Below are positions 3,103-35,435 of a DNA stretch of 35,435 bases, one piece after another (the first letter of the stretch is position 1; each line of letters begins with the position of its first letter). Under the pieces are notes generated by a model. It was not told the origin of the DNA, ran no database searches, and saw only the letters and a list, made by a program, of their open reading frames with translations. The translations under genes were made by a program, and so were the position numbers. The stretch lies in assembly GCA_903899985.1 (NCBI GenBank), contig CAIULL010000013.1, positions 1 to 35,435 of the forward strand, given 5' to 3'. The DNA comes from an uncultured Schlesneria sp. GTDB taxonomy: Bacteria > Planctomycetota > Planctomycetia > Planctomycetales > Planctomycetaceae.

Positions 3103-3422
3103 GTTCCCAAGCTCCAGCTTGGGAACGAATCTCTTCGAAGCTCCGCTTCGCGATTCGCGTAACGACCTGCGATTGGTATTCGCATGGATTACCGACGATG
3201 ACATCGGTTGCCGTCCTCGCCAATCGGGAAGCAGCGATTGCAAGACGTGTGTTCCCAAGCTCCTGCTTGGGAACGAATCTCTTCGAAGCTCCGCTTCGCG
3301 ATTCGCGTAACAACCTGCGATCGGTGTTCGCATGGATTACCGACGATGACATCGGTTACCATCCTCGCCAATCGGGAAGCAGAGCTTCCAAGACGTGTGT
3401 TCCCAAGCAGGAGCTTGGGAAC
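3103..3422. repeat. Palindrome-bounded 148-bp repeat, locus 2 (two units)
   Basis: Three 24-bp palindromes with arms GTTCCCAAGC / GCTTGGGAAC start at 3103, 3251 and 3399, exactly 148 bp apart each time. The centres differ (CC/CAG, CTG, AGG types) while the arms stay perfect. The two 124-bp interiors differ at about ten positions and each contain the GAAGC-tcc-GCTTC hairpin. The second unit keeps GGAAGC/GCTTCC near its end; in the first that hairpin is broken. The array sits between the two sulfatase genes, so any promoter of the downstream sulfatase must lie inside it or in the roughly 70 bp after it. Confidence 0.9.
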
Positions 3423-3468
3423 GAGGTAATGAGGGAGCGACGAAGCTTGGAGGCCGGGGATTTCATTG

Positions 3469-33428: not shown

Positions 33429-34556
33429 TTACGGAAGCAAGACTTTGACGTTTGAGCCGATCGCGAGTTTCGGCCAAAGCTTTCCGGCGGGCTCGATTTT
33501 CACTGCCACGAACGATTCCGACACACCGGCGACGGACGTGGTTTGTGGCGGGATATCGGTAATGATCCCGATCCGTTGGTCGTGCGCGGGGAAGATCAGA
33601 GTCACCTTTGATCCATGTCGCAATCGGGATGCTTCCGCCGAAGGGAACTGAGCCACGACGTGAGGTTGGATATCGTCCAGAATCTCAATCAAAGTCTCAC
33701 CATTGGGGACTCGATCCCCTGGCAGGAACCGGACGTCACCGACCGTTCCGTATGTCGGACTGGTGATCGTCAGCTCCTTCAACTGGCTGTCGAGCGACTC
33801 CAGTTCCAGTTTGGCTCCAGCAAGCCGAGCTTCCGCGACGTCAACGCCAGACGCTGATCGAATCTTGCTTTGTAGTTCTTTTTCCAATGAGGCGAGTGAT
33901 TTCAGTCGCTCCTCGCAAAGAGCGATTTGCGTGGCGAGAGTTTCTGTGGAGGCGGCTGCTGCATCTTCGCGGAGCATCGCTTGCAAACGTCGTTCATCCG
34001 GAAGATGAAGCTCACGCTTGATGGACCGAAATGGATGATCAACTTCTGCGACGACGGGGCTGACGTTGGCGTCGGAGTTCGTCAAATGATCTTTCCAAGC
34101 GAGTTGCTCAACCTGTTTGTTCAGCTTTTCCTGCGAGAGTTCAGACTCTTTTAATTGAGTTTCAAAGACTTCAGACTGAAGTTCACGTCGACGCCAGGCA
34201 AAATCGACCTCAGCACTGATCCTGGCTCGGTTGACTTCGGCCTCCAGTTCGGCAATCTCGCGTCGTTTTCCAATCAACCGTTCTTCGAGCTGGACGTCGA
34301 CCAATTGAAACAGCGCATCGCCAGGAGAGACTGACTGACCTGGTTTGACGGAGACATCTCGAATGCGAGCCACACAATTTGATTTCACAACGGTCGTGCG
34401 CGACTGAAGTGACCCGGGATGTGCACGCTCACCAGTCCATCCCAAGACCCAGGCAAATCCGGTTCCGGCAATAAGTGCCAGACCAATGATAAGTCCGATG
34501 CGACCTTGTCGCATGGAAGTTGAATTGTCCGTATTTACAGGAAGATTGGTCGGCAT
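33429..34556 (-). CDS. HlyD-like membrane fusion (efflux adaptor) protein
   Basis: Protein of 375 residues with one N-terminal span (RIGLIIGLALIAGTGFAWVLG, about 19-39). It is followed by a biotinyl-lipoyl-like half-motif (VKSNCVARIRDVSVKPGQSV, about 57-76), a long coiled-coil hairpin (about 90-255, rich in Glu/Leu/Lys/Arg heptads), the second lipoyl half (ITSPTYGTVGDVRFLPGDRV) and a beta-barrel (PHVVAQFPSAEASRLRHGSK). This is the order of membrane fusion proteins that bridge inner-membrane exporters to the outer envelope. No transporter or TolC partner gene is in the window. Confidence 0.88.
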   Translation of the reverse strand: MPTNLPVNTDNSTSMRQGRIGLIIGLALIAGTGFAWVLGWTGERAHPGSLQSRTTVVKSNCVARIRDVSVKPGQSVSPGDALFQLVDVQLEERLIGKRREIAELEAEVNRARISAEVDFAWRRRELQSEVFETQLKESELSQEKLNKQVEQLAWKDHLTNSDANVSPVVAEVDHPFRSIKRELHLPDERRLQAMLREDAAAASTETLATQIALCEERLKSLASLEKELQSKIRSASGVDVAEARLAGAKLELESLDSQLKELTITSPTYGTVGDVRFLPGDRVPNGETLIEILDDIQPHVVAQFPSAEASRLRHGSKVTLIFPAHDQRIGIITDIPPQTTSVAGVSESFVAVKIEPAGKLWPKLAIGSNVKVLLP

Positions 34557-34848
34557 CGTGCACGTGACCCTGGTAAGCGGAAAGAGATCTTTCCTCGAAT
34601 CGGCATAACGACGTGCTTTTCATCGGGCAGAGTGCTCGGTGGTCGTACGGAACTCCGAAAGTGAATGTTAGAAGCGCGTTAAACCGCAAAGTCGGGACGG
34701 TTCGTTACCTTCGCTTCCATCGGTTAACGAGTTTTTCTTCATGAATTCTGCGGCCGAGAAATTTAGTGTCAAAGTTCACCCGAGTTCGCGCGACTTCGAC
34801 GATTCCACGTAATTCATAGGCTTTGCGTCATTTTTCGATCGTGGATGA

Positions 34849-34928
34849 GTTCACCCGAGTTCACCCGAGTTCACCTGAGTTCACCTGAGTTCGCCTGACT
34901 TCGCCTGACTTCAATTGAATTCGATTAA
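34849..34928. repeat. Tandem decamer array, copy A
   Basis: Eight units of exactly 10 bp follow one another: GTTCACCCGA twice, GTTCACCTGA twice, then GTTCGCCTGA, CTTCGCCTGA, CTTCAATTGA and ATTCGATTAA. The consensus is about GTTCRMYYGA and drifts gradually along the array. A shorter lead of three decamers is at 34774-34803. The period matches one helical turn. Confidence 0.9.
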
Positions 34929-34990
34929 CCTCGCGGTTTCGAGTTCCGTTCGCTGCGGATATTTACTTCGAATTCAATTCTTGATCTTTA

Positions 34991-35076
34991 ACCACGGATC
35001 ACACGGATGGACACGGATAAATGCAGGGGCAATTTCCTGTTTTTTCTTATCCGTGATTATCCGTGTGATCCGTGGT
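34991..35076. repeat. Long perfect hairpin (MITE-like insertion)
   Basis: An 18-bp perfect inverted repeat (ACCACGGATCACACGGAT at 34991-35008 and its complement at 35059-35076) is followed inward, after 3-base bulges, by a 9-bp one (CACGGATAA / TTATCCGTG). It splits copy A of the long repeat, which is about 180 bp longer than copy B. I recall similar CACGGAT-type palindromes dispersed in environmental bacterial genomes; no coding capacity. Confidence 0.85.
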
Positions 35077-35178
35077 AAAAAAAATCCTGTCTTCACTCAG
35101 TTACCTTCGCGTACTGCTGTTCAAAAATCTTCTCTTCCGTTCCGCGACAATCCGGCCGCCGACAAATCTGGTGTCACA

Positions 35179-35304
35179 GTTCGATCAAGTTCGATCGACT
35201 TCGACCATTACTCGTAAACTGTAGGGTTTTGGCGATTGTTTCCTCGTGTTTTGAGGGTGTTCGAGTTCGATCAAGTTCGACGCAGTTCGATCGAGTTCGA
35301 ATTT
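35179..35304. repeat. Decamer arrays, copy B
   Basis: Three decamers lead (GTTCGATCAA, GTTCGATCGA, CTTCGACCAT; 35179-35208). After a spacer, four more follow at 35265-35304 (GTTCGATCAA, GTTCGACGCA, GTTCGATCGA, GTTCGAATTT). The unit has shifted from the ACCYGA ending of copy A to GATCRA, but the 10-bp phase is intact. Confidence 0.85.
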
Positions 35305-35435
35305 CTCTATTCCTCTGAGGCGAGCCGCGCGGCGTAAGCCTTTGGACTCTTCGTAGACAACTGTTATTCCGGCACTCAGCGACCGAGAAATTTGATGTCA
35401 AAGTTCACCCGAGTTCGCGCGACTTCGACGATTCC

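What the first reader, a model, noticed from the sequence alone, without database searches (positions are those of the whole stretch)
34754..35435. Hierarchical repeat: 10-bp phased GTTCRMYYGA arrays inside a larger repeated unit
Decamers repeat with an exact 10-bp period in at least two arrays (34849-34928; 35265-35304), each preceded by a three-decamer lead, in a unit present three times and running off the window. The sequence of the decamer drifts between copies while the 10-bp phase and the order header-lead-spacer-array are kept. That suggests selection on helical phasing, as for a cooperative DNA-binding protein, a partition or condensation site, or a bent or protein-coated segment. Ten bp is not a multiple of three, so a coding origin is unlikely. 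The explanation is inference; the periodicity is directly visible.
Basis: partly seen in the sequence, partly recalled or inferred. Interest (0 to 1): 0.75.

Follow-up and report, generated by a model that had tools for sequence, protein, structure and literature searches.

The report
Phased ten-base repeat arrays, dispersed genome-wide
A group of closely related planctomycete bacteria carries roughly a hundred scattered copies of a non-coding DNA element made of two runs of ten-base repeats that stay in step with each other across a probably bent spacer, which looks like a protein-binding site but has no known reader.

Summary
The window is one whole contig of a planctomycete (genus Schlesneria, inferred) and ends inside the third copy of a dispersed element: header, lead of 2-4 decamers, conserved core plus spacer, array of mostly 3-6 decamers, tail. 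Model matches number 106, 127, 78 and 74 in four sister species (scored candidates capped), ten in G006 (mostly look-alikes), one borderline in G007, none in nine other genus genomes; of 294 genomes of the phylum only the window's own matched.

New evidence supports phasing. Anchored on the core alone, 194 of 194 arrays start 4-7 bases beyond a multiple of ten, in two main classes ten bases apart. T-runs in the spacer repeat every 10.5 bases and are its better conserved columns. Lead and array carry the same letter type in 104 of 108 units. Clusters are never mixed in direction, and units lie mostly on the C-rich strand (39 of 54; repeated in other loci). RNA structure is not supported.

Against: look-alike arrays in G006 repeat every nine bases; indels are rare elsewhere in the unit too; ancestry is shared.

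Best reading: a BIME-like dispersed element acting as a DNA-level nucleoprotein site with an unknown reader; a selfish element is the main rival.

The parts
34750..34773 (+). unit 1 header (..CCGAGAAATTTAGTGTCAAA)
   Evidence: alignment A1 of 47 units; direct reading
34774..34803 (+). unit 1 lead: three decamers GTTCACCCGA GTTCGCGCGA CTTCGACGAT
34804..34848 (+). unit 1 core and spacer (short class; lead-end to array 55 bp), T-runs in helical phase
34849..34928 (+). unit 1 array, eight decamers, B-type letters (ACCC/ACCT/GCCT) drifting to AATT/GATT
34987..35080 (.). separate inverted repeat between units (TTTAACCACGGATCACACGGATGG..), 34-nt arms, 88% complementary; not part of the unit
35150..35178 (+). 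unit 2 header
35179..35208 (+). unit 2 lead: GTTCGATCAA GTTCGATCGA CTTCGACCAT
35209..35264 (+). unit 2 core and spacer (long class; lead-end to array 66 bp)
35265..35304 (+). unit 2 array, four decamers, A-type letters (GATC/GACG)
35364..35435 (+). unit 3: header and lead only, cut by the contig end

Best explanation
It is a clade-specific, dispersed, polar intergenic DNA element that most likely works as a double-stranded binding platform. An unidentified protein, or one protein and its variants, would bind each decamer, so that the lead and the array each carry a row of the same protein on one face of the helix. The T-run-phased, probably curved 45- or 55-bp spacer would let the two rows meet or be wrapped together, which would explain why its length differs by one helical turn or by about one base. 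Copies spread and turn over much like REP/BIME elements do. SHOWN: dispersion, anatomy, register across the spacer, matching letters in the two arrays, polarity relative to GC skew, clade restriction. PREDICTED by wedge models recalled from memory: curvature. INFERRED: a protein reader, bridging or wrapping, and the use (chromosome organisation, or a site handled during replication).
For: (1) Core-anchored test without any array or profile-end requirement: 201 cores, 194 followed by at least three in-grid decamer starts; register mod 10 is 4 (3), 5 (97), 6 (84), 7 (10), nothing else; first in-register decamer mostly at 54-56 (45) or 64-67 (140), the other nine at 35-47, 75 and 76, also in register. 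The seven without such an array include chance and cousin matches. An earlier profile-based parse agrees (117 of 117; 85 of 87 in 60 further loci; details in the report). (2) TT dinucleotides in the spacer alone peak at 10.5 bp, 3.8 times dinucleotide shuffles. The four spacer consensuses have p 0.018, 0 of 2000 shuffles, 0.009 and 0.0195; T-run columns are better conserved than the others in all four classes. (3) Predicted spacer curvature has mean z 2.4 in both models; 92% and 78% of 117 units exceed the 95th percentile of random windows. (4) Lead and array letter type agree in 104 of 108 typed units of 117. (5) Polarity: 0 mixed of 73 loci, 0 mixed of 60 clusters, 24 of them multi-unit. GC3 skew on the unit strand with coding strand balanced is negative in 39 of 54 (p 0.0015) and in 13 of the 15 non-overlapping loci where it could be computed; raw skew there is negative in 40 of 59. 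No bias to transcription among 17 co-directional sites: 9 opposite, 8 same. (6) No RNA structure: plus-strand fold z +1.47 and -0.90, consensus fold -0.45 kcal/mol with no compensatory pair.
Against: Indels are rare in the unit in general: lead-end to ATTCATAGG is 18 bases in 108 of 110, header to lead-end 35 in 80 of 92, and a decamer-free control distance (upstream box to header) is 39-44 in 71 of 79. So constancy within one base is weak evidence by itself; the ten-base step and the T-run period carry the argument. Units share ancestry, so the two length classes may reflect few events: the tree from 93 columns gives at least 21 class changes against 25-35 in shuffles but is poorly resolved. 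Predicted curvature of lead and array is mildly raised in one model and near random in the other, and the whole unit is near random. Look-alike elements in G006 use a nine-base repeat with TTGGCCAA letters, and TT power there peaks at 9 (55 modules, 39 of that type). Letter agreement between the arrays may be plain subfamily descent: only one independent pair lay on supported branches. The minus strand of unit 2 folds moderately as RNA (z -2.07). Placement among genes is ordinary (17 of 41 co-directional against 122 of 233 elsewhere, p 0.24). Eleven of fifteen genus members lack the elements or have far fewer. No binding protein was found.
Confidence: 0.48

Rival explanations
1. A REP/MITE-like selfish element without host function, moved as single-stranded DNA by a transposase in trans; the orientation bias comes from insertion at the lagging-strand template, and the decamers are enzyme-binding or foldback repeats.
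For: High copy number in intergenic DNA; clade restriction; presence/absence at orthologous sites: units beside P0003 in G000, G004, G001 but not in the G005 stretch, and beside P0001 in G000 and G004 but not in the G001, G005, G002 and G006 stretches; [quoted passage not shown] GATC, GGCC and GCGC letters make self-complementary octamers that can fold back. Two Y1-transposase genes lie near units by their coordinates: G005 C84 (about 0.8 kb) and G000 C76 (about 2.0 kb).
Against: No conserved foldback: B-type arrays (ACCC/ACCT) cannot pair with themselves, and unit 1 folds worse than most shuffles; no compensatory pair in the alignment. None of the 20 Y1 loci fetched has a unit within 1.5 kb, and two near cases among 49 Y1 matches in the four carriers is about what chance gives (own rough estimate, 1-2). 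Y1 genes occur in all 15 genus genomes, carriers or not. Many positions are shared between species. It does not explain the ten-base step or the T-run phase of the spacer.
Confidence: 0.34
2. Passive debris: a tandem decamer array that grows and shrinks by slippage inside an old repeated intergenic segment; phase is kept only because slippage moves whole decamers and other indels are rare.
For: Array length varies from 2 to 14 decamers by the parse; arrays are often at contig ends; bare decamer arrays without lead or core occur in unrelated bacteria; other distances in the unit are also fairly constant.
Against: The ten-base step lies in the non-decamer spacer; T-run columns are preferentially conserved; matching letters and polarity are not expected.
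Confidence: 0.14
3. A transcribed structured RNA, terminator or riboswitch-like element.
For: Position between genes; a moderately stable minus-strand fold of unit 2 (z -2.07).
Against: No covariation, plus-strand fold z +1.47 and -0.90, no Rfam match at a family's gathering score in four loci and only sub-threshold ones in the window stretch searched, no orientation bias relative to genes among 17 co-directional sites.
Confidence: 0.04

Closest known systems
REP / BIME elements (bacterial interspersed mosaic elements)
   Same: Short, usually >100 copies per genome, extragenic, species-specific, clustered; BIMEs and REPs are reported to be protein-binding sites (PMC2817692, abstract).
   Different: No conserved palindrome found; units in a cluster always point the same way here, whereas REPs in BIMEs alternate; no RAYT gene beside them in the 20 loci fetched; anatomy is two decamer arrays around a phased spacer.
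GTAG/CGTC-tagged REPs, which are also reported from Planctomycetes (PMC3733652, abstract and passages)
   Same: Dispersed repeats in the same phylum; the look-alike G006 core contains GTAG.
   Different: Those are 20-40 bp palindromes with an unpaired tag; the lead-to-array element here is well over 100 bp without a conserved stem.
Iteron / partition-type direct-repeat arrays (recalled, no call)
   Same: Direct repeats of about one helical turn that a protein can coat; a bent segment between two groups of sites.
   Different: Those are one or few loci beside their own gene; here there are about a hundred dispersed copies, and neighbouring genes were not searched for a binding protein.
HIP1-type highly iterated palindromes (recalled; one search listed no paper with that phrase)
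   Same: Octamers centred on GATC.
   Different: HIP1 is a single octamer, not a phased array with a core.

Membership tests
REP/BIME | Palindromic stem-loop in each unit | tested here: not met
   RNAalifold -0.45 kcal/mol, 3 pairs, none compensatory; plus-strand fold z +1.47, -0.90; one minus-strand fold z -2.07
REP/BIME | Alternating orientation of units in clusters | tested here: not met
   0 of 73 loci and 0 of 60 clusters mixed
REP/BIME | RAYT transposase flanked by the repeats | tested here: inconclusive
   no unit within 1.5 kb in the 20 Y1_Tnp loci fetched; among the listed rest two are near a unit by coordinates (G005 C84, G000 C76) and were not examined further
REP/BIME | High copy number in extragenic DNA, species- or clade-specific | tested here: met
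   106, 127, 78, 74 matches in four species; own genome alone of 294 in the phylum at E <= 1e-5
Structured RNA family (Rfam) | Match to a family at its curated score | tested here: not met
   none at gathering score in L090, L205, L221, L196; in window 34000-35435 two MIR1509 hits of 27.5 and 21.2 bits against 87, on the neighbouring inverted repeat
MITE | Terminal inverted repeats and target-site duplication | tested here: inconclusive
   no inverted repeat over the unit in the window; no clean empty-site junction could be read at the two sites compared
Iteron/partition array | Dedicated binding-protein gene beside the array | not tested
   flanking ORFs were listed but not searched against protein families
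Nucleoprotein site with helical phasing | Spacing conserved in steps of one helical turn | tested here: met
   194 of 194 core-anchored arrays in register, ten-base step; a control distance is also fairly constant, so shared ancestry contributes
Nucleoprotein site with helical phasing | Protein bound at the site | not testable with these tools
   needs binding experiments

The most novel reading that the evidence does not exclude
A chromosome-wide, replication-polar set of nucleoprotein sites with swappable recognition letters: the helix-phased frame (lead, curved spacer, array) is fixed, while the four middle letters of the decamers (GATC, GCGC/ACCC, and in a cousin species TTGATCAA or TTGGCCAA) change together in both arrays, as at orthologous sites where one sister species carries B letters and another A letters. 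That would be a coevolving DNA-reader system that organises or marks planctomycete chromosomes.
Probability: 0.15. Interest if true: 0.8.

Novelty: new variant of a known kind. Interest (0 to 1): 0.52.

Why it matters
If the phase is selected, these elements are natural helix-spacing experiments, about a hundred per genome, from which the geometry of an unknown nucleoprotein complex can be read before its protein is known. Planctomycetes have unusual, condensed nucleoids (recalled), and a polar, dispersed, clade-specific site family would give a handle on how such sites arise, spread and change recognition letters. If the rival is right, it is a new architecture of REP-like selfish DNA with an unknown mobiliser.

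Tried and rejected
RNA element: not supported on fold, covariation and Rfam. Coding origin: stop-poor frames run over many units; 17 of 95 units overlap a simple ORF call of 130 aa or more; no such product was searched, so this rests on the ten-base period and on the drift of letters. RAYT/Y1 transposase: present in all 15 genus genomes, so not specific; no unit in the 20 loci fetched; two near cases by coordinates were noticed only on re-reading and not followed up. Gene-context bias: a first small count (7 co-directional of 31) was not borne out by a larger one with a baseline (17 of 41 against 122 of 233). General ten-base rule for the wider group: rejected by TTGGCCAA arrays with period nine. 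Tree-based count of spacer changes and the independent-pairs test: not decisive because the alignment is short. Literature: nothing describing such an element was seen in the listings, seven searches of one open-access library and no proof of absence. The genome-contig scan with three decamers gave 21 stretches, seven from uncultured Schlesneria MAGs; in the other fourteen the unit profile found no lead or core, at most the array part.

Full report
WHAT IS THERE. The window is the whole of contig C13 (35,435 bp) of an 8.0-Mb, 296-contig genome, 99.97% complete. The genus is inferred to be Schlesneria: three contigs of genomes that share the window's genus code (G005 C101, G004 C66, G001 C194) agree in number and length with contigs titled 'uncultured Schlesneria sp.'. 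The contig ends inside the third copy of the element, so 'running off the window' is an assembly break at a repeat. Many other copies also sit near contig ends.

ANATOMY. From 119 full units and an alignment of 47, the element reads: header ..AAATTTGGTGTCAAA; a lead of two to four decamers (three in 93 of 113 parsed) usually ending in CTTCGACC; a conserved core ATTCCTCGTAATTCATAGG; a T-rich spacer; an array of 2-14 decamers by the parse (one unit with none by that parse); and, in the 40 of 117 units where it was found, a box GGCGAGCCG at 34, 44, 54, 64, 74 or 84 bases from the array start in 24 and at other distances in 16. GTTC-to-GTTC distances in units are 10 (355 times), 6 (63), 20 (37) and 4 (33); the 6 is mostly a GTTCGAGTTC that precedes the array in one subtype.

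COPY NUMBER AND SPREAD. With a sequence-only model R1 of the unit, G000, G001, G004 and G005 have 106, 127, 78 and 74 matches at E <= 0.01, with scored candidates capped at 150 per genome. G006 has 10, G007 one at E 0.004, and the other nine of 15 genus genomes none. The four carriers are sister species: their orthologues of two G000 neighbour proteins are 93-96% identical to G000, those of the other genomes at most 85%. Of 294 genomes drawn from the phylum only the own genome matched at E <= 1e-5, with stricter filters. The double-decamer pattern was found in 4 of 59 genomes, the own one counted, with no match of the backwards control.

REGISTER ACROSS THE SPACER. A decamer array keeps its own phase trivially if it grows by slippage. 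The informative distance is from the last lead decamer to the array, across non-decamer sequence. The cleanest test is: cores were found by a fuzzy pattern alone, with no demand on array or profile ends, in the first-set loci and 54 of the 60 later ones (the six overlapping loci left out). Of 201 cores, 194 were followed within 35-110 bases by an array of at least three decamer starts, and all 194 stood at 4 (3), 5 (97), 6 (84) or 7 (10) mod 10. The first in-register decamer lies at 54-56 in 45, at 64-67 in 140 and at 35-47, 75 or 76 in nine. The seven without such an array are, by eye, two chance matches (L231, L254), one cousin element (L260), one match on a unit's array rather than its core (L087), one core with no array (L238), and two units with degraded arrays that are in register by eye (L048, L251). 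The earlier profile-based parse gave 47 (1), 54 (3), 55 (18), 56 (14), 65 (37), 66 (37), 67 (7) in 117 units, with the search limited to 46-71. By the plain first-match rule, 108 of 117 were at 4-7 mod 10, six of them at 75-86; the nine others (48, 49, 60, 61) are arrays with a GTTCGAGTT or similar prefix read six bases early. In 60 further loci 87 of 89 full units parsed: 55 (11), 56 (5), 62 (2), 64 (1), 65 (33), 66 (30), 67 (5); the two at 62 start from a mis-registered lead and are 66 when read by eye. Both classes occur in both letter types by the crude typing (A: 32 long, 15 short; B: 49 long, 21 short).

WHAT LIMITS THE REGISTER ARGUMENT. Other distances in the unit are also fairly constant: lead-end to ATTCATAGG is 18 in 108 of 110, header to lead-end 35 in 80 of 92 with ten-base steps from lead length, and upstream box to header, which holds no decamers, is 39-44 in 71 of 79 with no ten-base step. 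So rarity of indels and shared ancestry explain part of the constancy; what they do not explain is the second class exactly ten bases away. How many independent events lie behind the two classes is not settled: the tree from 93 columns gives at least 21 class changes, fewer than 100 shuffles (25-35), but its branches are poorly supported.

CURVED SPACER. TT dinucleotides of the spacer alone have 3.8 times the power of dinucleotide shuffles at 10.5 bp, with no peak at 6-8 or 13-15 bp. In 79% of 117 units fewer than 5% of the unit's own shuffles reach the observed power; the consensus of each of the four length classes has p 0.018, 0 of 2000, 0.009 and 0.0195; in each class the T-run columns beyond the core are better conserved than the rest (0.77 v 0.66, 0.77 v 0.68, 0.89 v 0.63, 0.85 v 0.74). 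Lead-plus-core and array are mildly raised in one model (z 1.5 and 1.4) and near random in the other; the whole unit is near random.

LETTERS. The four middle bases of the decamers come in two sets, A (GATC, GACG, GACC, GTTC) and B (GCGC, ACCC, ACCT, ACCA). Lead and array are of the same set in 104 of 108 units that could be typed, of 117. Because subfamilies share descent this is not proof of coevolution: on supported branches only one independent pair was available. At orthologous positions the set can differ. At one site both of two tandem units are B in G000 (L093) and A in G001 (L116). At a second, G005 (L228) is B with a long spacer and G001 (L253) and G004 (L270) are A with short ones. 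Beside P0001, G000 is B and G004 is A. Of the six orthologous sets aligned the other four keep their set. The window's own first unit has its orthologue in G004 (L129) with the same spacer length and changed decamers.

POLARITY. Units in a cluster always point the same way: 0 mixed of 73 loci and 0 of 60 clusters, 24 of them with several units; tandem duplication could account for that. The unit strand is more often the C-rich one. Raw skew was negative in 39 of 58 (p 0.012). Third-position skew with coding strand balanced was negative in 39 of 54 (p 0.0015, Wilcoxon 2.5e-4), while coding bases divide evenly (0.501) between strands. In the first set with the six overlapping loci dropped, raw skew was negative in 40 of 59, and GC3 skew, computable in only 15, in 13. 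The four genomes give 12/16, 8/13, 9/11 and 10/14. That this skew follows replication is supported by the complete chromosome of G002, where GC3 skew is mostly positive in one arc and negative in the other (20 windows). If the G-rich strand is the leading strand, as usual (recalled), the element reads against the fork. About 28% of clusters go the other way, so the bias is moderate.

TURNOVER. Beside P0003, G000 has three full units and a fragment, G004 two full units and fragments, and G001 three units, in the same intergenic region and direction; the G005 stretch has none and a much shorter region. Flanking DNA is 85-88% identical; the longer alignable pieces of the unit region are about 67-77%. 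Beside P0001 a unit is present in G000 and G004 and not found in the stretches of G001, G005, G002 and G006; the G014 contig ends too early to tell, and the sequence past the gene does not align among G000, G001, G004, G005 and G002. Many other positions are shared between two or three carriers (those loci were chosen because they hold units, so no rate can be given).

COUSIN ELEMENTS. In G006 one full GTTC-type unit (L180) was read, and the weaker matches read (L187, L190, L193, L195-L197) have a similar plan with other letters: TTGATCAA decamers and the core CATCCCTGTTTTGTAGSGTTTG, mostly given twice 64-65 bases apart. A second kind has TTGGCCAA in nine-base steps with cores 53 bases apart. 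The core pattern, two mismatches allowed, occurs 78 times in G006, 2, 1, 3 and 2 times in G000, G001, G004 and G005, and never in the other 94 of 99 genomes; backwards control 0. Common descent with the window's element is suggested by plan and core but was not tested formally. In these cousins TT power peaks at 9, not 10.5 (55 modules, 39 of the TTGGCCAA kind), which speaks against a universal helical rule.

READING. The evidence fits best with a double-stranded site: two rows of the same binding motif on one face of the helix, on both sides of a curved spacer. REP/BIME elements are the nearest known kind in abundance and habitat, but the palindrome and the alternating orientation that define them are not met, and the RAYT link is unproven: no unit in the 20 Y1 loci fetched, though by coordinates two other placements lie about 0.8 kb (G005 C84) and 2.0 kb (G000 C76) from a unit, about as many as chance would give by my rough estimate. 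A selfish, single-strand-mobilised element remains a serious rival because of the orientation bias and the presence/absence pattern. No reader protein was identified.

LITERATURE. Abstracts of PMC2817692 and PMC3733652 were read, with passages of the latter; PMC6006769 only in search listings. No description of this element was seen in the listings.

Noticed in passing
window 34987-35080: Inverted repeat of ACGGAT motifs (34-nt arms, 88% complementary) between units 1 and 2; the sub-threshold Rfam miRNA hits on it are probably chance.
   Followed up: no
window 3103-3424: Tandem repeat of a 148-bp unit, 2.2 copies, 92% matches.
   Followed up: no
L205 (G000:C296), about 1500-2450: Six tandem copies, 170-171 bp apart, of the cousin element (GTTGGCAAA repeats plus TTCCCTGTTTTGTAGGGTTTG), each with a partly inverted second half.
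   Followed up: partly
L056 and L131 (G004:C66 start), L066 and L132 (G004:C181 start): Contigs begin in long near-perfect decamer arrays (GTTCACCCGA; GTTCGTTCGA), so some true array lengths are probably longer than the assemblies show.
   Followed up: no
L083, L275, L030, L012 and others, downstream of arrays: A further interspersed repeat, like TCGTGTTTTCGAACTTTCGTGCTTTCGTGATTGGTTT, follows several arrays; the intergenic regions are mosaics of several repeat families.
   Followed up: partly
L169 (G001:C85), past the P0001 orthologue: Where G000 and G004 carry a unit, G001 has two small ORFs that look by eye like an antitoxin and a PIN-domain toxin; not searched.
   Followed up: no
G000, G001, G004, G005 and G002 beside P0001: Sequence past the conserved gene does not align between these species: an apparent synteny breakpoint where two of them carry a unit.
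   Followed up: partly
G005:C84:21482-22702 and G000:C76:90076-92568: Y1 transposase matches about 0.8 and 2.0 kb from a unit.
   Followed up: no
L067 (Microcoleus), L072 (Mycobacterium attenuatum), L074 (Hydrogenedentota) and others: Bare decamer tandem arrays of the same general form in unrelated bacteria, without lead or core.
   Followed up: no
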